From: Paraburkholderia edwinii
GTDB taxonomy: Bacteria; Pseudomonadota; Gammaproteobacteria; Burkholderiales; Burkholderiaceae
Length of the DNA: 64,000 nucleotides
Assembly (NCBI RefSeq): GCF_019428685.1
Contig: NZ_CP080095.1
Location: 3,844,001-3,908,000 of the forward strand
Direction: 5' to 3'
The notes beneath the pieces are model-generated. The model was given only the letters and a program-made list of their open reading frames with translations. It had not been told where the DNA came from and did not search any database. The translations under genes were made by a program, and so were the position numbers. Of the stretch, positions 7,334 through 22,515 are shown in pieces (the first letter of the stretch is position 1; every line of letters starts with the position of its first letter).

Positions 7334-7529
7334 AAAATGGCAATCCCGCAACTGTGGGGTTATCTGTGGCGAGCACGGTTTGGGGCGAAACGTCCAACAA
7401 CAATGCCCAGCACTGTCACCACGGTCGCAGGCCGGAGCAATGTCATGTAAGATGCGTGCATGGGTGTCAGCTGCATGTCGCGGCATGACAGGTAAATTGC
7501 GCTGGTCGGGCCACCACGCAGGAGTACCT

Positions 7530-8906
7530 ATGCCCACGCAATCAAACTCATCCACATCCTCCCCGTCAGTTCCACAGCGCATCGCGCACAAGGCCTTCAC
7601 CGCGCTGGAAAACTTCCTGCGAGTTGAAGCGGCCAGTGGCATCGTATTGCTGATCGCTGCTGCGGCCGCACTACTCTGGGCAAATTCACCGCTTTCCGAT
7701 AGCTACCACAGGCTGTGGGAATGGCCGCTTGTGTTTGGCGCCGGTGATCTGGTGTTCGCAAAGCCGCTTCACTTCTGGATCAACGACGCGCTCATGACCA
7801 TCTTTTTCCTGGTGGTTGGCATGGAGATACGTCGGGAAATGCACGAAGGGGCGTTGAGCGACCTGAGACAGGCGGTGCTGCCGCTGGCAGCGGCAATAGG
7901 CGGCGTAGCAGTACCGGCGCTCATTTACGCCACAATGAACCGCACGCCTGATGCCATTCATGGCTGGGCCATCCCGACCGCCACGGATATTGCTTTTGCT
8001 GTTGGGGTACTGGCACTGCTTGGACGCTCGATTCCCGGTAGTGTGCGTGTCTTCCTGCTAACGCTTGCGATTGTCGACGACATCATCGCAGTGCTCGTCA
8101 TCGCTTTTTTTTACTCGTCTGGATTCGACTTCGCTGGACTCGCCGTTGCACTTGCCGGCATTGGACTGGTATTGGCCATGCAGCGCGCGGGAATTGGCAC
8201 TGCCCCAGCCTACATCGTTCCGGGCGCCATTATCTGGGTGGGCCTGCTTGTCAGCGGCGCGCATCCTACCCTCGCTGGCGTCGCACTCGGGTTGCTGACG
8301 CCGGTTGTCCCGACGCACAGACGTGAACGCGCGCTGGTGGAAATTTCGCGTGCGACGAGCGACGTGACGGGGCCAACCATGGCAGCTACCGTCGACATCA
8401 ACCGGTTGGCCAAACCTTTGCAAACCCTGCGCCTGGCGCAACGTGAACTGTTACCCCCGGTTGTTCGCGTCCAGTGGGCACTGCACCCCTGGGTCGCATA
8501 CGGCATCATGCCGCTGTTCGCATTGGCCAACGCCGGGGTGACACTGGGTAGCGTGGATCTATCACGGCCTGAAACTCTCTGGATCGCGGCTGGAATATCG
8601 ACTGCCCTTGTCGTCGGCAAGCCGGTAGGTGTATTTCTTGTCACGTGGTTGCTGGTCAGGCTCAAACTGTGCCGCCTGCCACCAGGGGTGTCATGGAGCG
8701 GACTCGGGCTGATCGCGCTTCTCGCGGGAATCGGCTTCACCATGTCGATCTTCATTGCCACGCTGGCGTTCAATGACGAAGGTGCGTTGAACGTTGCCAA
8801 GCTCGGCGTGCTTGCCGGATCGTTTGTCGCAGGAGCACTAGGGCTTGGGTGGGGCATGATCTGCTCACGCTTGAAAATCGGGGATCGTAACCCGGCCGTC
8901 CAATAG
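7530..8906 (+). CDS. nhaA: Na+/H+ antiporter NhaA
   Basis: NhaA exports Na+ (or Li+) in exchange for protons across the inner membrane and supports pH and salt homeostasis. The 458-aa product has the family start [20 protein letters not shown], the segment [21 protein letters not shown] ([13 protein letters not shown]), and the paired ion-binding aspartates in AIVDDIIAV (about D183/D184). About 11-12 membrane helices are apparent, with [15 protein letters not shown] near the C-terminus. The start at 7530 is supported by AGGAG about 6 bases upstream; the frame extends to 7380 but without homology. It is divergent from kdp, so K+ uptake and Na+ export genes share one intergenic region. Confidence 0.95.
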
Positions 8907-9710: not shown

Positions 9711-10337
9711 TCACACCTCTGTCTGTTCAGCCATTTCGAGCGCGTCGTCAACTTCGATGCCGAGATATCGAACTGTGCTTTCGAGCTTGGTATGGCCGAG
9801 CAGCATTTGTACGGCCCGAAGATTTTTCGTCCGGCGGTAGATCAGCGATGCTTTGGTACGGCGCATTGTGTGCGTTCCATACGCGGTGTCGTCGAGTCCG
9901 ATCGACCGCACCCATCCGTGCACGAGGCGGGCGTACTGACGCGTCGAAAGATGCGGTGAGTCATGGATCCTCCCGGGAAAAAGGAAGTCCGAAGGCGTCA
10001 GCCCCGCTGTCCTGATCCAGGTTTCCACGCTATCCCGCGTCTGCTCCGTAATCTCGAACTGCACCGGGCGCTGGGTCTTCTGCTGCATGACTGTCGCTCG
10101 AGGCGCCACGCGTGAGCCAAGGCAGACGTCGCTCACCCGTAACCTAGTCAGGTCGCAAGCACGTAGCTTGCTGTCGATCGCGAGATTGAACATCGCAAGA
10201 TCACGCGTTTTCGCCCCCAGTTGCATGCGGATTCGAATCGCCCAGATTTCCCTGAGCTTCAGCGGTGGCTTCTGCCCGGTTAGCTTGTCCTTGTTCCACG
10301 GCACCCGGGGCACGCGGTTGCTCATCGTCGCTTCCAT
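9711..10337 (-). CDS. Small tyrosine recombinase / phage-type integrase
   Basis: The 208-aa product has a compact tyrosine-recombinase catalytic domain. Candidate catalytic residues are R59 (SKLRACDL), K87 (QQKTQRP), H156 and R159 (GTHTMRR), H182 (LLGHTKLES) and Y191 (VRYLGI). The N-terminal arm (RVPRVPWNKDKLTGQKPPLK) is a short basic segment typical of this Burkholderia family, and there is no large core-binding domain. The start at 10337 has AAAGGAGAG upstream. A truncated second copy lies near 22.55-22.67 kb, next to IS3-family and IS21-family DNA. It marks the left side of the accessory region. Confidence 0.9.
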   Translation of the reverse strand: MEATMSNRVPRVPWNKDKLTGQKPPLKLREIWAIRIRMQLGAKTRDLAMFNLAIDSKLRACDLTRLRVSDVCLGSRVAPRATVMQQKTQRPVQFEITEQTRDSVETWIRTAGLTPSDFLFPGRIHDSPHLSTRQYARLVHGWVRSIGLDDTAYGTHTMRRTKASLIYRRTKNLRAVQMLLGHTKLESTVRYLGIEVDDALEMAEQTEV

Positions 10338-10490
10338 GATGACTCTCCTTTCAAAGGAAGGGAGAATCAGTCTGCGCCCCGCGCCAATGGGCGATGCCCG
10401 ACCCTTCTGGGACATCGGGTCGCTGCGAGCGAACGGCGGCTCTCGGTGGTCAACAAGACATTGAAGCTCCGATGCTCTTTCTGTCTCACC

Positions 10491-15786: not shown

Positions 15787-15858
15787 TTTAGTCTTACTGC
15801 CCACTTCAAGTCCTGTCCAGCGGCGCTGACTCCTGGTGCTAAAGGATTACTCATTTTG

Positions 15859-15885
15859 AGCCTCGTCTCGCGGGCGGGGCTTTTT
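15859..15885 (+). terminator. Hairpin element A: intrinsic-terminator-like
   Basis: The stem is GCCTCGTC / GGCGGGGC (8 pairs including GU) with a TCGCG loop, followed by TTTTT. It could terminate the 15556-15786 transcript. It belongs to the repeated hairpin family described in the findings but lacks the CCATAGG box. Confidence 0.65.
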
Positions 15886-16040
15886 AATGCCGCCTGCATT
15901 GCACCTTCGATCCGCCCTGCGCAAACAGTGGACGTCCTCTAATCGACCAACAGAAAGGAGTGACGCGTTGAAAGTTTTATTTGACTTACATGTTGCATCT
16001 CTATCGTCGACGCCGCATCCAATCATCCAATCGATATCAC

Positions 16041-16462
16041 ATGAAAAAGACAATGCTTGCACTGATTTACCTCGGGACCGCCTCAGCATTTTCGCAAACA
16101 CTTCACGGCGGCTCGCACTTGAATTCCCCGTACGGAAACCCGATCTTGATGTAATGGCAACGACGAAACGATGAACGGTTACACCCGCAGCAATGGCACC
16201 TACGTCCAGCCGCACGACCGCACCGCTCCCGACTCGATTCCAAACAGCAGTTATTCAACGCAAGCAAACCGTCAACCCGTACACCGGTAAGATTGGATAT
16301 AAGCAGTCTGCGTTTAATGGCGCAAGCGTTCCTTCGCCGCGGGCATCAGCGAAAGCGAAGATGTCGTACGTCCTATCGTCGCACGCACATCGATTTCCGA
16401 CGCGGGCCAGCGACGGCAACGACAGCGTTGCAACAGAGATTCGCGGTGAAACGACGCGGTGA
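16041..16462 (+). pseudogene. Frameshifted small exported protein (GYTRSNGTYVQPH family)
   Basis: From the ATG at 16041 the frame gives a signal peptide, MKKTMLALIYLGTASAFSQT, then HGGSHLNSPYGNPILM and a stop. Moving to another frame at 16154 gives NGNDETMNGYTRSNGTYVQP and PHDRTAPDSIPNSSYSTQAN. A further shift near 16268 gives VNPYTGKIGYKQSAF. These three pieces line up with a small secreted Burkholderia protein family (my recollection) whose members carry GYTRSNGTYVQPH and NPYTGK motifs, so the gene seems broken by two one-base indels. The last part after about 16315 does not look like the family. Confidence 0.7.
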
Positions 16463-16659
16463 GGAGACGTCAAGACAAGACATCCAACCTCAAGCGCGCC
16501 GACGCCATTGACGACAGCAGGTAGAGCAGATGCATCAGGTCAATGCAAAGCGCACAACGTCCGGGGCTCGACACCGCAGGAAAGCAGAACTGCCGTTTTG
16601 CCGTGTCGCGGGGTAAGCGCCCGCCGTGTCGTTGCCTTTTGCGAAGCGACGCCTTTTCA

Positions 16660-16860
16660 TCAGTACCGCCGCTTGTAGTGCCCCTCTCGCCAGAGCGTTG
16701 CGCCGACCGAGGTCAGCAGCGCAATTTCCTCTTCGCCCAGCCGGTCCCATGCGCCGGCCAGCCATGCCGCTAGCCCGGCGCACGCGTGATCGAGGTCAAC
16801 CGTTGCACGTCCTTCCAGGTTGAGTTGTTCGAAAACGGCGGTCACGTCAGTTGGCGTCAC
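16660..16860 (-). CDS. Conserved hypothetical protein, 66 aa (copy 1)
   Basis: The start is a GTG with GGGGAG 6 bases upstream. The product contains DVTAVFEQLNLEGRATVDLD, AWLAGAWDRLGEEEIALLT and GATLWREGHYKRRY. It is a small acidic helical protein of unknown function. A paralogue of exactly the same length, but with an internal stop, lies at 19011-19211 on the other strand. The surrounding longer open frame (to 17277) is not supported by composition. Confidence 0.75.
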   Translation of the reverse strand: MTPTDVTAVFEQLNLEGRATVDLDHACAGLAAWLAGAWDRLGEEEIALLTSVGATLWREGHYKRRY

Positions 16861-16910
16861 GGTGGCTCCCCATTGTTCACCTCGGTCTACTAGACCAGCT
16901 TCTGTCGTTG

Positions 16911-17024
16911 CGTACAGATTGTCCATTTGTTGACCGCGCTTCGGGCTATATCGTACCGCTACTCGAGTCGCGACGAGCGCCATTTTCCATAGGTCCAGCC
17001 TCGTCTTCCCGCGGGGCCGTTTTT
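16911..17024 (+). ncRNA. Hairpin element B: candidate small RNA with terminator
   Basis: A promoter-like TTGTTG-N16-TATCGT (about 16927-16954) is followed by a CCATAGG box (16987-16993) and a hairpin (GCCTCG.../GCGGGGC, 16998-17017) with CGTTTTT. The predicted transcript is about 67 nt. It resembles elements C and D in order and spacing. It overlaps the 3' part of a doubtful minus-strand frame (16946-17296). The coordinates include possible upstream promoter sequence. Confidence 0.4.
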
Positions 17025-17296
17025 GATCCGGGTGCCCTGTGTTCGTTACGAAGATTCGACGGCACGCGTAGGTATCCGGCCGGATGTTCGTACAACCAGT
17101 ACTGGCACGCCGCCGCATGCGATGCAAAGTCGTCTCCGCGCCCGCGCAACACCTCCGCCCAATGTCGAACATGATCGACCGGCACGGTGCCGGGCGCGCT
17201 GCTCCATAGCGCAGCCACGAGGAATCGATCAGCTTCTTCAGGGCTATCTGACAGGACTTCCGCAGGTTGTAGCACAAAACGAAAGTGGGACGCCAT
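16946..17296 (-). CDS. Doubtful hypothetical protein, 116 aa
   Basis: The frame starts MASHFRFVLQPAEVLSDSPE and contains DRFLVAALWSSAPGTVPVDH, HAAACQYWLYEHPAGYL and a charged C-terminus. Codon use is protein-like in the first two thirds. The last third is the complement of hairpin element B, so either the true gene is truncated or frameshifted or the frame is fortuitous. No ribosome binding site and no known domain are seen. Confidence 0.35.
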   Translation of the reverse strand: MASHFRFVLQPAEVLSDSPEEADRFLVAALWSSAPGTVPVDHVRHWAEVLRGRGDDFASHAAACQYWLYEHPAGYLRVPSNLRNEHRAPGSKTAPREDEAGPMENGARRDSSSGTI

Positions 17297-17796
17297 CGTC
17301 AGTCAGAAGAAGATTGAAGGTCAGGTAGTGGAGTGTAGCCAGGACGGCGCCGTAACTGTCGCGATTCGACATTTCAATTTCGCCTGCGCTCGCCTTATTC
17401 GATATGCGGTAGCAGGGCGCGCCCCGTTGACCGGATAAACTGGGAGTGCAATGAGTGGAAGCGGCACGGAGCAAGGAACGCGGGGGTCAGTGAACTCCTG
17501 CTACCGCAGCGTTCTCCGGCAGCGAGCGTCGCTGCAACGTCTCGATGCTATGGGGCGCGGACGCCACGCTCGCACTGGAGATACTGGAGCGATTGGAAGT
17601 ACTACCGAGCACTTTCGGACATTCGGGCGACCCGTTTGCATGCGGCCGACGGAAGGTCTTTGCTGCAACGCAAGGTTTTTCGGACATCGGCAGAGGTCGT
17701 ATTGATTGATGCGGGTCGTCAGGCGCCGAAACTCGTTTGTCGCTTGTAAGCAGGAACGAGGAATGCGGGGTTACCCGAAATAACCGGGATCCCCAG
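17297..17796. other. Unrecognised stretch upstream of the response regulator
   Basis: A protein-like stretch without a good start is visible on the + strand around 17545-17710 (LWGADATLALEILERLEVLP, then RRKVFAATQGF) and ends in a stop at 17711. It may be a relic, but no family is recognised, so it is not called as a gene. Confidence 0.3.
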
Positions 17797-18234
17797 ATGT
17801 CATTAATTCTGCTTGTGGGCGACGCCGAAGACAACATACGACCACTTCAACTTGTGATGGGCGCGGCCGGTCATCGTCTTCTCAGCGCTGAAAACGGCGA
17901 GATCGGCTACGGTATCGCTTCCCGGGAGTACCCTGATCTGATCGTTACTGACTGGGACATGCCCGTCCTGGACGGACGTGGGATGTGCGCACGGCTTGCG
18001 CTGCACCCAATCCTCTCGCAAATACCTGTCGTTGTAGTTTCGGCCATGGAGGTTGTCGCTTCGCGTGACATTCGCTGGAACGCCTTCCTTCGTAAACCGG
18101 TGAACCCGCTGCAGCTGATCCGGCTGATCGCGTCACTGCTGACCGGTCGTATACCGGTGTCCACGAAGCTTGTGGACGGCATGAAAACGCTGTCATCGAG
18201 GCGCCCGGCTGTCAATCCAAAGTGCTGGCCATAA
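17797..18234 (+). CDS. Single-domain response regulator (CheY-like receiver)
   Basis: The 145-aa product starts MSLILLVGDAEDNIRPLQLV. It has an acidic pair variant (GDAED), the phospho-acceptor in DLIVTDWDMPVLDGRG, the conserved Ser in VVVVSAM and Lys in AFLRKPVNPLQL. A 35-residue tail without a domain follows. With no output domain it probably acts by protein-protein interaction, or as a phosphate sink. No partner kinase is nearby. The start is chosen at the receiver's first strand; the ribosome binding site is weak. Confidence 0.8.
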   Translation: MSLILLVGDAEDNIRPLQLVMGAAGHRLLSAENGEIGYGIASREYPDLIVTDWDMPVLDGRGMCARLALHPILSQIPVVVVSAMEVVASRDIRWNAFLRKPVNPLQLIRLIASLLTGRIPVSTKLVDGMKTLSSRRPAVNPKCWP

Positions 18235-18252
18235 AGCGGAAGCCGGTTACTC

Positions 18253-18280
18253 AAAAAAACGGCAGCGAGACGAGGCCAGC
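18253..18280 (-). terminator. Hairpin element E: decayed terminator-like element
   Basis: On the minus strand GGCCTCGTCTCG is followed by CTGCCG and a run of seven T. It matches the left arm of elements A and D, but the right arm is lost, leaving only a weak stem. It lies between convergent genes and could end the 18392-18775 transcript. Confidence 0.35.
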
Positions 18281-18391
18281 TAGATCGATCACTTCACGCG
18301 CCTGACCTGAACCGGATTCCCGCCGATGGCGCCGAGCCGTTTTCTGTTCCGGCGTCCGGTCCGACCTTTTGCACTTCGCGGCAACCGACTG

Positions 18392-18775
18392 TCACTTGTC
18401 GGCAAGGCGTTTCCAGATGGAACGGCGCAGCAGCTGCTGGCACACACTGAACATTTCTCCCACGATCGGCGATCGGTAGTCGAGACGTCCGCCGTCAGTG
18501 AACAGTTGCGCGAGTGTCGCTGCGTCGCTCAGCGCTGGTGCGTTCAGAAAGCTGGGCGCGAGTTCCGCAGACACGCGAGCCAGATGTGCCCGCTCAAACC
18601 AGCTGCAATTGGCGCCGTTACTCGCGAGCCAAATTTGCGCTGATTCGACGAGATGGGTGGTTTCGAGCCATACGCCTGTACGCGCCCTGGCGACGAGCTG
18701 TCCGGCCACCAGGTAGGTCAGCAGTTCAGCGCGGGCCTCGTCGTCGAGATGCTCGGGGCGTCTTGCAGGATTCAT
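18392..18775 (-). CDS. Hypothetical protein, 127 aa
   Basis: The product begins MNPARRPEHLDDEARAELLT, followed by YLVAGQLVARARTGVWLETT and SAQIWLASNGANCSWFER, and ends SIWKRLADK. It looks like a soluble, mostly helical protein with good codon bias. I do not recognise a family. The start at 18775 avoids an upstream Cys/His-rich extension; the ribosome binding site is weak. Confidence 0.6.
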   Translation of the reverse strand: MNPARRPEHLDDEARAELLTYLVAGQLVARARTGVWLETTHLVESAQIWLASNGANCSWFERAHLARVSAELAPSFLNAPALSDAATLAQLFTDGGRLDYRSPIVGEMFSVCQQLLRRSIWKRLADK

Positions 18776-18888
18776 TTGGCGGTTACCGTGGCGAGGGTGC
18801 AGAGAGCATACGCTGCAATGCAACATCGCGTGGATATTTTCCAGACGGCTGCGCCTCGCAAAGCTTCTTGTACGCGAAGATGTGTGCG

Positions 18889-18974
18889 CGTACAGTGATT
18901 GTGCTCGCTCTCGTTCCCCGTGGCGAGTAACTCCATAGGCTCCGCCTGCCTTCGCGTACGCGGGGCTGTTTTTT
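18889..18974 (+). ncRNA. Hairpin element C: candidate ~74-nt small RNA
   Basis: A promoter-like TTGTAC-N17-TACAGT ends at about 18896. CCATAGG follows at 18933-18939, partly overlapping a stem GCTCCGC/GCGGGGC (18939-18966), then TTTTTT (18969-18974). The predicted RNA starts near 18901. It ends 36 bp before copy 2 of the 66-aa gene, on the same strand, so it could also be a leader attenuator. Confidence 0.45.
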
Positions 18975-19010
18975 GGCCGCAGTCGTCAGGACGCAAATTC
19001 GGAGCGCACC

Positions 19011-19211
19011 ATGGCGCCAGGTGATGTGATCGCCATGTTCGAACAACTCAACCTCGAAGGGCGCGCCACAGTCGACCTCGATCATGCACGCGCGGGGTTC
19101 GCCGGATGGCTAGCTGGCGCATGGGATCGGTTGGACTAAGAGGAAATTGCGTTGCTGACGTCGGTCGGCGCAACGCTGTGGCGCGAGGGCCACTACAAGC
19201 GGCGGCACTGA
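19011..19211 (+). pseudogene. 66-aa hypothetical protein (copy 2) with internal stop codon
   Basis: This reads MAPGDVIAMFEQLNLEGRAT, then DRLD, a TAA at codon 43, then EEIALLTSVGATLWREGHYK and a TGA at 19211. Apart from the nonsense codon it has the same 67-codon length as copy 1 at 16660-16860. Codon 43 is GAA in copy 1 and TAA here, a single G-to-T change. GGAG precedes the ATG. A truncated 42-aa product could still be made. Confidence 0.8.
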
Positions 19212-19267
19212 CGCTTGCGCACAAAGGTTCCCGGCAACGATGTGGGGCCAAATACTGTGCGCGCGTA

Positions 19268-19540
19268 TCAGCTAGGGCCGGGATCGGCCCACGTGCCCAT
19301 CGGATCCTGCTTGTCATTGTTCTCCGCACGGTCCTGCCCGGCCGATGTCACGCGTACGTAACCGTTCGCCTGGATTTCGACGAGGCCCACGGGCTGTAAT
19401 AACTGGACGTGGTAGTAGACCTCGGAATCAGAGCATTTTTCTTCAAGCTTGGCGGTCAGCGTATTGATACTCATCGTCCCGCTTTTGTCGTGCACCAGCG
19501 TCCGCAGAATCTCTATCGCCAGTTTTTTGTCGCGGCGCAT
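19268..19540 (-). CDS. Small winged-helix-like protein (DUF2513-like)
   Basis: The 90-aa product reads MRRDKKLAIEILRTLVHDKS..., then EVYYHVQLLQPVGLVEIQA and NGYVRVTSAGQDRAENN. The pattern (MRRD start, helical repeat, YHVxLLxxxGLV, then a beta wing) resembles DUF2513/phage-type small winged-helix regulators. GGAGG-type sequence (GCGGAGGCCCTCC) precedes the ATG. DNA binding is plausible but not shown. Element D lies just upstream on the same strand. Confidence 0.6.
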   Translation of the reverse strand: MRRDKKLAIEILRTLVHDKSGTMSINTLTAKLEEKCSDSEVYYHVQLLQPVGLVEIQANGYVRVTSAGQDRAENNDKQDPMGTWADPGPS

Positions 19541-19599
19541 GGAGGGCCTCCGCGTAATTCGAGGACCTCAACGATAGCAGTGTTTTTGCGATCTGATCG

Positions 19600-19676
19600 A
19601 AAAAAAGCCCCGCCGCGAGGCGAGGCCGAACCTATGGACAACTGTTGCGCTCGCATGGTCGGCGAACAACTGTACG
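19600..19676 (-). ncRNA. Hairpin element D: candidate ~70-nt small RNA
   Basis: On the minus strand a promoter-like TTGCCG-N17-TATCGT ends near 19674. CCATAGG follows (19637-19631), then the best stem of the family, GCCTCGCC-TCGC-GGCGGGGC (19626-19607), and seven T (19606-19600). It precedes the 19268-19540 gene, so it may be an independent small RNA or a leader. Confidence 0.45.
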
Positions 19677-19737
19677 ATAGGACGCCAAGGGCGGCGCGGC
19701 AAGGTTAGCTATCGCCAGACGTGAGGCGCTTGCGCGA

Positions 19738-19952
19738 CTACATAATCCGCTGTGCAAGCGGAGGTCGGATACTGCGGTCCGCAAACGTCGCACCCTCTTC
19801 GACGTAGTAGGGCCGGCCCACTTTGACCGGCGGCGGATAGATTTCCCTTGATTGATCCACAGGCGTGCCGTGCGAATTGCCGGCGGTGGATCGAACTCGC
19901 GCTTCAGCCATTCATCAAGACGGATCTTCGTATGAAATTTGCCTTGGTCCGA
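19738..19952 (-). pseudogene. Frameshifted excisionase-like gene
   Basis: On the minus strand KIRLDEWLKREFDPPPAIRT and ARLWINQGK read in one frame. After a one-base deletion near 19847, IYPPPVKVGRPYYVEEGATF and ADRSIRPPLAQRIM continue to a stop at 19738. The order (FDPPP, then R-W-x-G-KIYPPP-KVGR-YYV) fits small phage excisionases. No start codon is seen in frame before the IS21 end at about 20035, so the 5' end may also be lost. Confidence 0.6.
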
Positions 19953-20034
19953 GAGTTAGCTGATGTTCGCGAAGAAACTAGCCGCTGCGCGCTTCACCAG
20001 ATAGCTTTGCAATGCGGCCGCATCGACCTCAGGC

Positions 20035-20904
20035 TGCGGATTCCGGCGAACGTGATCACGCTTTCCGCCGGATCGTGATCACGGATTCCGAATGATCGTG
20101 ATCAGCGGTTCCGGTTGATCGTGATCGTCGATCACAGGTTTCCGAAACGCGTGATCACGATGCCGGAATGAGCGATCACGGGACCGAAACGGGTGATCAC
20201 GTAACCGGAACGTAATCCGGGTTTGAGTCTGGCGGTGGCGTTGCGCATGTATTCACCGGCGGCGTTAGCCTGCTCCCTTTTTTGCGGGAGAGGCGCTGAT
20301 GCCGACACCTCGGATGAGCATGCGCAAATTGAAGGAAGTCCTGCGACTGAAGTGGGCGTGTGGCCTGACGCATCGTCAGATCAGCCGGGCCATCGGCATC
20401 AGCGTCGGGGCCGTGTCGAAGTTCGCAGCGCAGGCCAACCAGGCGGGACTCGACTGGGCCGCAGCCGAAGCGCTGTCCGACGATGAACTGAACGCGCGCC
20501 TGAGGCCTGCGGCAGCCGATGCCACGGCGACAGCGTTGCGACGCATCGAGCCCGACTACGCGGCATTGCATCGCGAACTGCGACGCAAGGGCGTGACGCT
20601 GCAACTGCTGTGGGAAGAATACGCTGAAGCGAACCCCGGCCAGCGGACCTACCGCTACACGCAGTTCTGCCAGAAGTACAAGGACTGGGCGAAGTCGATC
20701 AAGCGCTCAATGCGCCAGCAGCACCGCGCCGGCGAGAAGCTGTTCGCCGACTTCGCGGGCGCCACCGTGCCGATCCTCGCGCGCAATGGCGGCGTCGAGT
20801 TCGAGGCGCACGTGTTCGTTGCCGTGCTCGGCGCATCGAACTACACATTCGCGTGCGCGACGCGCACGGAGACGATGGCGGACTGGATCGGCAGCCTGTG
20901 CGAC
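20035..20904 (+). mobile_element. Truncated IS21-family insertion sequence
   Basis: The left end starts TGCGGATTCCGGCG at about 20035 and carries several short repeats of the type CGTGATCACG between 20050 and 20200, as in the multiple terminal repeats of IS21 elements. The istA gene follows. The right part of istA, istB and the right end are missing; the element is cut by the IS3-family element at about 20905. Confidence 0.8.
20040..20205. repeat. IS21 multiple terminal repeats (GATCGTGATCA type)
   Basis: At least six copies of a GTGATCAC or CGATCAC core with TTCCG/CCGGA spacers occur at irregular 15-30 bp intervals. This is typical of IstA binding sites at IS21 ends and is not a CRISPR array: units are short, spacing is irregular and copies are imperfect. 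Confidence 0.75.
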
Positions 20905-20919
20905 GGGGGGTGCGGCTAA
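20299..20919 (+). pseudogene. istA: IS21-family transposase IstA, 3'-truncated
   Basis: The product begins MPTPRMSMRKLKEVLRLKWA and has the N-terminal helix-turn-helix (HRQISRAIGISVGAVSKFA) and the start of the DDE domain (GEKLFADFAGATVPI, first catalytic Asp). After about 200 of an expected ~500 residues (ETMADWIGSLCD) it runs into the IS3-family terminus and ends. It is therefore inactive. No istB remains. Confidence 0.85.
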
Positions 20920-22515
20920 AATCTTGGACTGGTTATGCCAAGATTCCAAGAGTTTCCCGGTATTCAAGTGGGCTGAGAGAGCCGAGCGAGACCTTGATCC
21001 GGGTTGCGTTGTACCAGCGGATGTACGAGTCGAGGACTTCAATGAAGTGATCAACGGTCGTAGCCCGCCAGTCGCGAGAATAGAACAGTTCCGTTTTGAG
21101 CCGTCCGAAGAAGCCTTCGCAGGCCGCGTTATCAGGTGAACATCCTTTGCGTGACATCGAGCGAACAAGCCTGGCATCGCGCATACGGGATAGCCATCCC
21201 GGCCAACGATAGTGCGCACCGCGATCGGAGTGGACCACCGGCCGATCACCGCTATCAGCCACCGCCTCGATGGCCGAATCCAGCATGGCATTGACGAGTT
21301 CAGCATCTGGCCGTGTGCCGATTGCCCAGCTCACAACGAGCCCGTCGAAGCAGTCTATTACCGGCGACAGATACACCTTGCCGGCAGGGATCTGGAATTC
21401 GGTGATGTCGGTGAGCCATTTCTGATTCGGGGCGACTGCACGGAAATCGCGATTGATGAGATTCTCCGGAGCGGGGCTGATTTCTCCACGATAGGAGCCG
21501 TAGCGACGTCGTTTCGTTGTGGCAGCGGCCAAGCCTTCCTGTCGCATCAAACGTCGCACGACCTTCTCTGAGATAAATACCTGCTGCCTGCTCAAGGCTG
21601 CCCGGATTCGACGATAGCCGTAGCAGCGGTAATTGCATTCGAAAATGTCTGCAATGACGCGACGCGCGCCAGCATGCCTGTCAGCGACAAGCAGACGTGC
21701 ACGGTGATAGAAGTAGGAACTGCGGGCTAGCCTCAGGACGGATAACAGATCTGGCAACGGATAGGTTTGCTTCAGGGCATCAACCAGCATCGTCTTCTCC
21801 CGGTTGCTCAGGAGCTGCGGGTCGATGCCCATCCCTTTTTTTACCAGTTCGTTCGCTTTCTTGAGGATGTCGCGCTCAAGCTCCAGCTTCCGGATGTCGC
21901 GTCGAAGCGACTCGACCTGCTGCTCCAGTTCCGCAATCTCAAGGTTCGGAGCTGGCTTCTTCTGGCGTCTCATGGATGCTGGAGCCTCCCGACCGAGGAG
22001 CTGGTTCTTCCAGTTGTACAGCAGAGGCCTGCTCACGCCTGCTCTCTGGGCAACCACGCTTGCGCTTTCATCCCTGGTGCACAGATCAATGACCGCTGCC
22101 TGCCTGGCCTCGCGCGATTTCGGAACGCTGCCGGCTACTCTGCCCACCATACGCTTTCCGATCTCGGGACACAATTCTTCGATCCATTTGGCAAACGTTC
22201 CGCGACACGGATAGCCTAAAGCCTTCAAGGTCGCAGCAGCACATCGGTCATGGCTCAGGAAGTGATCGACGGCAGTCTGTTTCTGTTCAGCCGAATACCT
22301 TGGCGCAGCGCGAATATAGCCGGTTCGCAAACCATGACACTGCTCGTATTCGCGATGCCAGGCCTTCAGAGAATTCTTTGTCGGGTAACCCAGCTGTCTG
22401 ATGGTCGCCCTGATGCGCTTGCCCAACTTCAAATAAAGCTGAACTGCTCGAATGCGGTCTTCGTACGAGTACATGGACTACCTCCAGGTAGTCCAGGATT
22501 TTGTCCGCACCCCCC
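20905..22515 (-). mobile_element. IS3-family insertion sequence, apparently intact
   Basis: Inverted ends 20911-20930 and 22490-22509 match at 17 of 20 positions (TGCGG...AAAATC.TGGACT). The match extends into a G6 run on the left and a C7 run on the right, so the ends may be at 20905 and 22515. One transposase gene fills the element. Flanking DNA differs in kind (istA on the left, integrase on the right) and no target duplication is visible. Confidence 0.85.
20933..22474 (-). CDS. IS3-family transposase, single continuous frame
   Basis: The 513-aa product begins MYSYEDRIRAVQLYLKLGKR with two helix-turn-helix segments (second: SASVVAQRAGVSRPLLYNWK). A leucine-rich coiled coil follows (ELEQQVESLRRDIRKLELER), then the DDE catalytic core: Asp in KWLTDITEF, Asp in VVHSDRGAHY and Glu in NAACEGFFGRLK. 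Most IS3 elements split this into orfA and orfB joined by -1 frameshifting. Here both parts are one frame, so the protein needs no recoding. No inactivating change is seen. Confidence 0.9.
   Translation of the reverse strand: MYSYEDRIRAVQLYLKLGKRIRATIRQLGYPTKNSLKAWHREYEQCHGLRTGYIRAAPRYSAEQKQTAVDHFLSHDRCAAATLKALGYPCRGTFAKWIEELCPEIGKRMVGRVAGSVPKSREARQAAVIDLCTRDESASVVAQRAGVSRPLLYNWKNQLLGREAPASMRRQKKPAPNLEIAELEQQVESLRRDIRKLELERDILKKANELVKKGMGIDPQLLSNREKTMLVDALKQTYPLPDLLSVLRLARSSYFYHRARLLVADRHAGARRVIADIFECNYRCYGYRRIRAALSRQQVFISEKVVRRLMRQEGLAAATTKRRRYGSYRGEISPAPENLINRDFRAVAPNQKWLTDITEFQIPAGKVYLSPVIDCFDGLVVSWAIGTRPDAELVNAMLDSAIEAVADSGDRPVVHSDRGAHYRWPGWLSRMRDARLVRSMSRKGCSPDNAACEGFFGRLKTELFYSRDWRATTVDHFIEVLDSYIRWYNATRIKVSLGSLSPLEYRETLGILA

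What the first reader, a model, noticed from the sequence alone, without database searches (positions are those of the whole stretch)
16911..19676. A cluster of related promoter-hairpin elements: candidate multicopy small-RNA family
Seen: five hairpin/T-tract elements lie within 4 kb (A 15859-15885 +, B 16911-17024 +, E 18253-18280 -, C 18889-18974 +, D 19600-19676 -). A, B and D share the left arm GCCTCGYC; all except E share a right arm of GCGGGGC type followed by T5-T7. B, C and D also share CCATAGG just before the stem and a plausible -35/-10 pair at fixed distance (TTGTTG-N16-TATCGT, TTGTAC-N17-TACAGT, TTGCCG-N17-TATCGT). Each predicts a transcript of about 67-74 nt. Flanking genes are unrelated small hypotheticals, so simple gene-associated terminators do not explain the shared box and promoter. 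Inference: either a dispersed small-RNA gene family or a mobile leader/attenuator.
Basis: partly seen in the sequence, partly recalled or inferred. Interest (0 to 1): 0.72.

Follow-up and report, generated by a model that had tools for sequence, protein, structure and literature searches.

The report
Three look-alike tiny RNA-gene candidates
Three short stretches within 2.8 kb share a promoter-like start, a TCCATAGG box and a transcription-stop hairpin, and look like a private trio of very small RNA genes; no further copies were found, so this is a modest local novelty, not a widespread family.

Summary
The core observation holds. Elements B, C and D carry TCCATAGG at one fixed distance before a strong terminator, with a weak promoter-like pair about 40 nt upstream (predicted RNAs about 64-70 nt). 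B and D are clearly related; C is more distant. A looks like an ordinary terminator after a small ORF, of the same local stem type; E is not a convincing terminator.

The "dispersed family" reading fails. In the 8.3-Mb genome the box-plus-terminator pattern occurs only at B, C and D. A covariance model drops from 81-92 bits (self) to at most 25 bits in 141 genus genomes and 34 bits in 299 family genomes; the best outside group is a gene terminator in the locus read. The strict pattern hits three Bacteroidota contigs among 84,980 species.

The leader reading fails for B and D; C cannot be excluded.

Closest known kind: Burkholderia "double-hairpin" sRNAs (RF02278), with three true copies elsewhere in this genome. 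B, C and D miss that family's cut-off, yet TTG-N20-TAYAGTGATT occurs three times in the genome: at two RF02278 genes and at C. I read the trio as lineage-restricted, two-hairpin sRNA-like transcription units; transcription and targets are untested.

The parts
16927..17024 (+). Element B: TTGTTG-N16-TATCGT, short hairpin, TCCATAGG at 16986-16993, terminator 16998-17024; predicted RNA about 16961-17024 (64 nt)
   Evidence: start site inferred
18868..18974 (+). Element C: TTGTAC-N17-TACAGTGATT (same promoter motif as two RF02278 sRNA genes), hairpin with CU-rich loop, TCCATAGG at 18932-18939, terminator with T-tract to 18974; predicted RNA about 18903-18972 (70 nt)
   Evidence: start site inferred
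19600..19702 (-). Element D: TTGCCG-N17-TATCGT, hairpin, TCCATAGG at 19638-19631, terminator 19627-19600; predicted RNA about 19667-19600 (68 nt)
   Evidence: start site inferred
15859..15885 (+). Element A: intrinsic terminator 74 nt after a small ORF; same stem sequence type as B and D, no box, not a member
18253..18280 (-). Element E: T-rich tract with no proper terminator hairpin, about 110 nt after ORF 18392-18826(-); not a member
16946..17296 (-). ORF (116 aa) whose extended C-terminal tail is antisense to B
16660..16860 (-). Small hypothetical gene copy 1 (66 aa), beside B and divergent from it
19011..19211 (+). Second copy of that gene, 83% identical, starting 36 nt after C's T-tract; interrupted by a stop
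19268..19540 (-). Small HTH-like ORF downstream of D (Pfam HTH_20 below its cut-off); has its own TGCTATCGTT promoter-like box after D's terminator, kept in a 59% identical homologue that lacks D

Best explanation
B, C and D are three locally multiplied, diverged, self-contained short transcription units. Each would give an RNA of about 64-70 nt: a 5' hairpin, a short linker with TCCATAGG, and a terminator hairpin with a U-tail. They would act as a private set of sibling trans-acting sRNAs, with the box as the likely pairing seed. Shown: the sequence anatomy, the relatedness, the restriction to this locus in everything searched, and that C carries the promoter motif of two of the genome's double-hairpin sRNA genes. 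Inferred: transcription, start sites, Hfq use, seed role and targets.
For: Exactly three genome-wide hits of box plus terminator; whole-element similarity above resampled sequence; TCCATAGG 8/8 in all three pairings against 41/66, 38/76 and 38/73 identical columns upstream of it and 27/37, 30/42 and 29/41 after it; a hairpin arm pair YTCG(C)...(G)CGAG kept with different loop lengths (read from sequence; folds C and D with it and a CUCG/CGAG form of it in B); TTG-N20-TAYAGTGATT has 3 hits in 8.3 Mb, two at RF02278 genes and one at C, control 0; TATCGT also appears in a conserved promoter-like box before the HTH gene here and in a distant homologue; no supported same-strand gene for B or C to terminate.
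Against: Promoters weak. B-C and C-D upstream similarity not significant. Fold z-scores ordinary. No conservation in any searched species; the 74% homologue P0002 of the ORF antisense to B has residues that cannot encode an intact box there if the ungapped alignment is right. Putative start-codon targets GGAGN{3,9}CCTATGG are not enriched (3 against 10 in the control). The C promoter pattern was defined after seeing the match. In the fold ensembles five of seven box bases are mostly unpaired in B and C, but six of seven are mostly paired in D, which weakens the seed idea. B and D do not have the RF02278 promoter motif.
Confidence: 0.45

Rival explanations
1. Locally copied or converted terminators: stretches of an accessory region in which one terminator type (also seen in A), with some flanking sequence, has been multiplied and serves only to stop or insulate transcription; the box is inherited sequence.
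For: GCCTCGN{4,12}GGGGCN{0,2}TTTTT has only three sites in 8.3 Mb, at A, B and D; A aligns to D better than 500/500 resamples; four of the six strong terminators my detector found in 64 kb lie in this 4 kb, although a looser scan of 10-22 kb shows little excess (13 found, 9.3 expected, sd 2.9); the region has a duplicated, interrupted gene, IS genes and an integrase; D could end the excisionase-like reading frame about 110 nt upstream (label recalled).
Against: B and C have no supported same-strand gene to terminate; the box is kept while the part upstream diverges; C has the double-hairpin sRNA promoter motif.
Confidence: 0.35
2. 5' leaders/attenuators: a short leader ends at the hairpin unless the downstream small gene is to be read.
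For: C ends 36 nt before a gene copy on the same strand, leaving little room for another promoter; D lies about 60 nt before the HTH ORF.
Against: B has no supported same-strand gene before the response-regulator ORF (17737-18234), some 700 nt away (mechanical ORFs in between were not tested); the HTH gene has its own conserved promoter-like box after D; fetched homologue loci of the small gene (5) and of the HTH gene (13) lack the element; the gene copy after C is interrupted; no shared leader peptide seen.
Confidence: 0.1
3. Diverged members of the RF02278 double-hairpin sRNA family.
For: Same size and two-hairpin plan; C shares the promoter motif with two RF02278 genes of this genome.
Against: D scores 15.8 bits against a cut-off of 50, and B and C are not listed up to E 10 (13 of 14 control genomes also give sub-cut-off hits, so 15.8 means nothing); alignment of the non-terminator part to the three host copies is mostly at chance level (best p 0.0075 among nine comparisons of B, C and D); no CU-rich 5' end in B or D.
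Confidence: 0.1

Closest known systems
RF02278 Betaproteobacteria toxic small RNA ('double-hairpin RNAs' ncS03/ncS05/ncS27/ncS62 of Burkholderia cenocepacia; PMC5688073, section 6 and passages read)
   Same: Very short (57-92 nt there), two hairpins with an intrinsic terminator, 3-5 homologues per genome, own promoter; C shares the promoter motif of two host copies
   Different: B, C and D miss the family cut-off, lack the CU-rich 5' end (C has a CU-rich loop only), carry TCCATAGG between the hairpins, and sit in one 2.8-kb cluster; the paper says the double-hairpin RNAs are distributed throughout Burkholderia genomes
Neisseria NmsR tandem sRNAs (as described in the discussion passage of PMC5688073; not read separately)
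   Same: Neighbouring homologous short sRNAs
   Different: CU-rich seeds there, TCCATAGG here; no sequence comparison was made
Sibling sRNAs in general (PMC4211561, abstract and outline seen)
   Same: Several related sRNAs in one genome
   Different: Here expression is unproven and the trio was found in one genome only
RF02837 anti-hemB
   Same: Best weak Rfam match of D (22 bits)
   Different: Far below its cut-off of 49.5; similarity is mainly the terminator

Membership tests
RF02278 double-hairpin sRNA | Covariance-model score at or above the gathering cut-off (50 bits) | tested here: not met
   D 15.8 bits; B and C not listed up to E 10; three true copies elsewhere at 74.1-77.9 bits. No RF02278 hit in the window at the gathering cut-off; with relaxed settings only A appears, 18.0 bits, E 3.3
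RF02278 double-hairpin sRNA | Two hairpins in about 57-92 nt, second one the terminator | tested here: met
   Predicted folds, (start sites inferred)
RF02278 double-hairpin sRNA | CU-rich unpaired stretches complementary to ribosome binding sites | tested here: not met
   Not seen in B and D; C has a CU-rich loop only (read from sequence)
RF02278 double-hairpin sRNA | Common upstream (promoter) motif, reported for three of the four homologues in the paper; the paper's figure was not seen, so the motif tested is the one shared by two host copies | tested here: inconclusive
   C has TTG-N20-TAYAGTGATT; B, D and the third host copy do not
sRNA gene (general) | Discrete transcript with own start and intrinsic terminator | not testable with these tools
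sRNA gene (general) | Conservation above flanks in related genomes | tested here: not met
   P0002 tail. P0001, 98% identical, keeps the residues over the box
Attenuator/leader | Element kept upstream of the homologous gene | tested here: not met
   (HTH gene and small gene; other neighbours only through)

The most novel reading that the evidence does not exclude
A trio of sibling sRNAs that arose recently inside one lineage's accessory region, at least one of them using the promoter of the conserved double-hairpin sRNAs and all carrying a new TCCATAGG seed: a freshly made sRNA family caught before it spread.
Probability: 0.2. Interest if true: 0.55.

Novelty: new member of a known kind. Interest (0 to 1): 0.3.

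Why it matters
If expressed, the trio would be a small, recent, lineage-restricted sRNA set in a Burkholderiaceae accessory region, useful for asking how sRNA genes are born and multiply and whether a conserved sRNA promoter is re-used. If not expressed, it is a case of locally multiplied terminators, ordinary but worth knowing when predicting sRNAs from sequence.

Tried and rejected
Tried and rejected: (1) Further copies by covariance model. In 141 genus genomes (host included; stricter filters, which lose some weak matches) 90 have a hit at E <= 1, the best outside one 25.1 bits. I read the letters of 29 outside loci and rescored 15 of them, with ten alignments printed: generic terminators or partial, box-less likeness in most; the nearest (L053, CCATAAG) has no T-tract. 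In 299 family genomes 29 others hit at E <= 0.01: 16 of one other genus (25-34 bits) and 13 scattered ones at 28.6 bits or less, of which only one (G058, L056) was read. Of the 16, seven loci were aligned and look alike; in the one read in full (L085) the hit is a gene terminator preceded by CATAGG right after a stop codon. (2) Strict pattern in 84,980 species: three contigs, all Bacteroidota by name, about what I expect by chance (own estimate, about 2); the host and very near records may be left out of that collection. (3) Box pattern in 144 genus genomes: seven outside matches, one per genome, none followed by a T-tract, against 29 matches of the reversed control in the same call. (4) Viral contigs and phages: no match; plasmids: two records match only the small gene copy; relatives of two neighbour proteins in viral contigs: none confirmed; the HTH protein in plasmids: none. 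(5) Start-codon targets of the box: not enriched. (6) Direct homology to RF02278 outside the terminator: not significant overall. (7) Model R1 was dropped because its predicted structure did not use the terminator stem of B and D. (8) My first translation of the second gene copy began one base off and was redone. Literature searches listed no description of this trio; of the 143 papers holding CCATAGG and sRNA only 10 were listed and none read, so absence from print is not claimed.
Full report
What is there. The window lies at G000:C1:3844001-3908000 of an unnamed 8.3-Mb genome, Burkholderiaceae by its relatives (named protein hits are Paraburkholderia, Pararobbsia and Trinickia). Elements B (+), C (+) and D (-) were read directly. 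Each has a promoter-like pair, then about 25-30 nt that can form a small hairpin (left arm YTCG(C), right arm (G)CGAG, loops of different length), then TCCATAGG, four bases, GCCT and a terminator ending GCGGGGC plus a T-tract. Predicted RNAs, counting the start 7 nt after the -10 as in the RF02278 models, are 64, 70 and 68 nt.

Is it more than chance? CCATAGG occurs 6 times in the window against 2.28 expected. CCATAGGN{2,6}GCCTN{8,20}GGGGC occurs three times in the whole genome, at B, C and D, and its reversed control never. Alignments over 230 nt reach scores matched by 0/1000 (B-D), 0/1000 (C-D) and 3/1000 (B-C) Markov resamples. In the 75 nt upstream of the box alone the figures are 14/1000, 127/1000 and 610/1000. 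A against D gives 0/500 although A has no box, so the terminator carries part of the score (all). In a control, 51 non-redundant terminators from fetched loci of other genomes share an 8-mer at a like offset in 23 of 1275 pairs. So B and D are paralogues over the whole element, and C joins them mainly through the box, the terminator and their spacing.

What does not belong. A is a terminator 74 nt after a small ORF and has no box. It is however of the same stem type: GCCTCGN{4,12}GGGGCN{0,2}TTTTT has only three sites in the genome, A, B and D. Of 141 genus genomes, 54 (host included) hold that pattern, each other one at one to three scattered sites. E shows no terminator hairpin by folding or by two detectors.

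Further copies. The box pattern hits 8 of 144 genus genomes including the host; the other seven have one match each, none with a T-tract, against 29 reversed-control matches. Model R2, built from B, C and D with the terminator stem only, scores them 81-92 bits. It finds nothing above 25.1 bits elsewhere in 141 genus genomes. In 299 family genomes the best is 34.4 bits; the best hits form one group in another genus, and in the one read in full the hit follows a stop codon and is a gene terminator. Of 13 weaker, scattered hits there, twelve were not read. The strict pattern in 84,980 species gives three Bacteroidota contigs, and none in viral contigs. A DNA search with 15800-19900 matched pieces of the neighbouring genes in 66 of 141 genomes including the host; no listed match from another genome overlaps B, C or D.

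Surroundings. GC is 57-60% across 6-22 kb and 57% at 26-30 kb, against 61-70% beyond 30 kb. There is a phage-type integrase (9711-10415), an integrase-core transposase (20933-22474) and another transposase domain, and a 205-nt inverted duplication of a small gene, one copy beside B and one beside C. C lies on the strand of its gene copy and B opposite to its copy, so element and gene were not simply copied together.

Leader or sRNA? C ends 36 nt before the interrupted gene copy and could be a leader. D lies before an HTH-like ORF, but that gene has TGCTATCGTT between D's terminator and its start. The same box precedes a 59% identical homologue in another genus, which has no D-like element. B faces no supported same-strand gene before the response-regulator ORF at 17737 (three mechanical ORFs in between, 17023-17328, 17187-17438 and 17451-17705, were not tested) and runs antisense to the tail of ORF 16946-17296. 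Model R2 finds no element in the five fetched loci of small-gene homologues or the 13 fetched loci of HTH homologues. A shared leader role is therefore unlikely.

Link to a known sRNA type. B. cenocepacia has four homologous double-hairpin RNAs of 57-92 nt (RF02278), three of which share an upstream motif; other Burkholderia genomes hold three to five (PMC5688073, section 6 and passages read). This genome has three RF02278 genes over the cut-off, all outside the window; D scores 15.8 bits and B and C are not listed. Two of the three have TTGCGT-N17-TATAGTGATT ahead of them. TTG-N20-TAYAGTGATT has three matches in 8.3 Mb: those two genes and C (reversed control 0). I chose the pattern after seeing the likeness, so its weight is moderate; by itself TAYAGTGATT occurs once in the window, at C, against 0.05 expected. 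Outside the terminator, B, C and D do not align to the RF02278 genes better than resamples, apart from one of nine comparisons (B-L113, p 0.0075). They work like double-hairpin sRNAs on paper but are not members.

Evidence against function. The promoters are weak; fold energies are ordinary. The box is mostly open in B and C but mostly paired in D. The 74% identical homologue P0002 of the ORF antisense to B carries Glu-Ser-Val-Glu where the host has Gly-Pro-Met-Glu, so the box cannot be intact there; P0001 (98%) keeps Gly-Pro-Met-Glu. Complementary start-codon sites are not enriched (3 against 10).

Verdict. A real, local trio, restricted to one genome in everything searched, best read as sRNA-like units (0.45), closely followed by locally multiplied terminators (0.35). 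Only RNA data can decide.

Noticed in passing
window 7462-7518 (+): nhaA-I RNA motif (RF03057, 41.6 bits) at the start of the ORF 7380-8906 that encodes a Na+/H+ antiporter (PF06965), so the true start is probably further in.
   Followed up: no
window 9711-10415 (-): Phage-type integrase (PF00589; phrog_216) within the lower-GC region.
   Followed up: partly
window 20038-20202: Repeats with GTGATCAC cores, three of them spaced 23 nt, next to a 206-aa ORF with a weak sigma-70 region 4-like match (20299-20919) that ends where a transposase ORF lies (20933-22474); looks like the end of another insertion sequence (IS21 type is recalled, not tested).
   Followed up: no
window 16884-16896: Near-perfect palindrome GGTCTACTAGACC (odd centre) between B's promoter and the start of gene copy 1; possible operator.
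   Followed up: no
window about 19738-19990 (-): Frame-broken stretch containing VGRPYYVEEGATF, excisionase-like from memory only; a piece of it (19795-19900) matches many genus genomes.
   Followed up: no
L085-L091, around 1501-1587: In another genus of the family a terminator is preceded by CATAGG in many species (16 genomes, 25-34 bits with model R2; seven loci seen); in L085 it follows a stop codon; chance likeness.
   Followed up: partly
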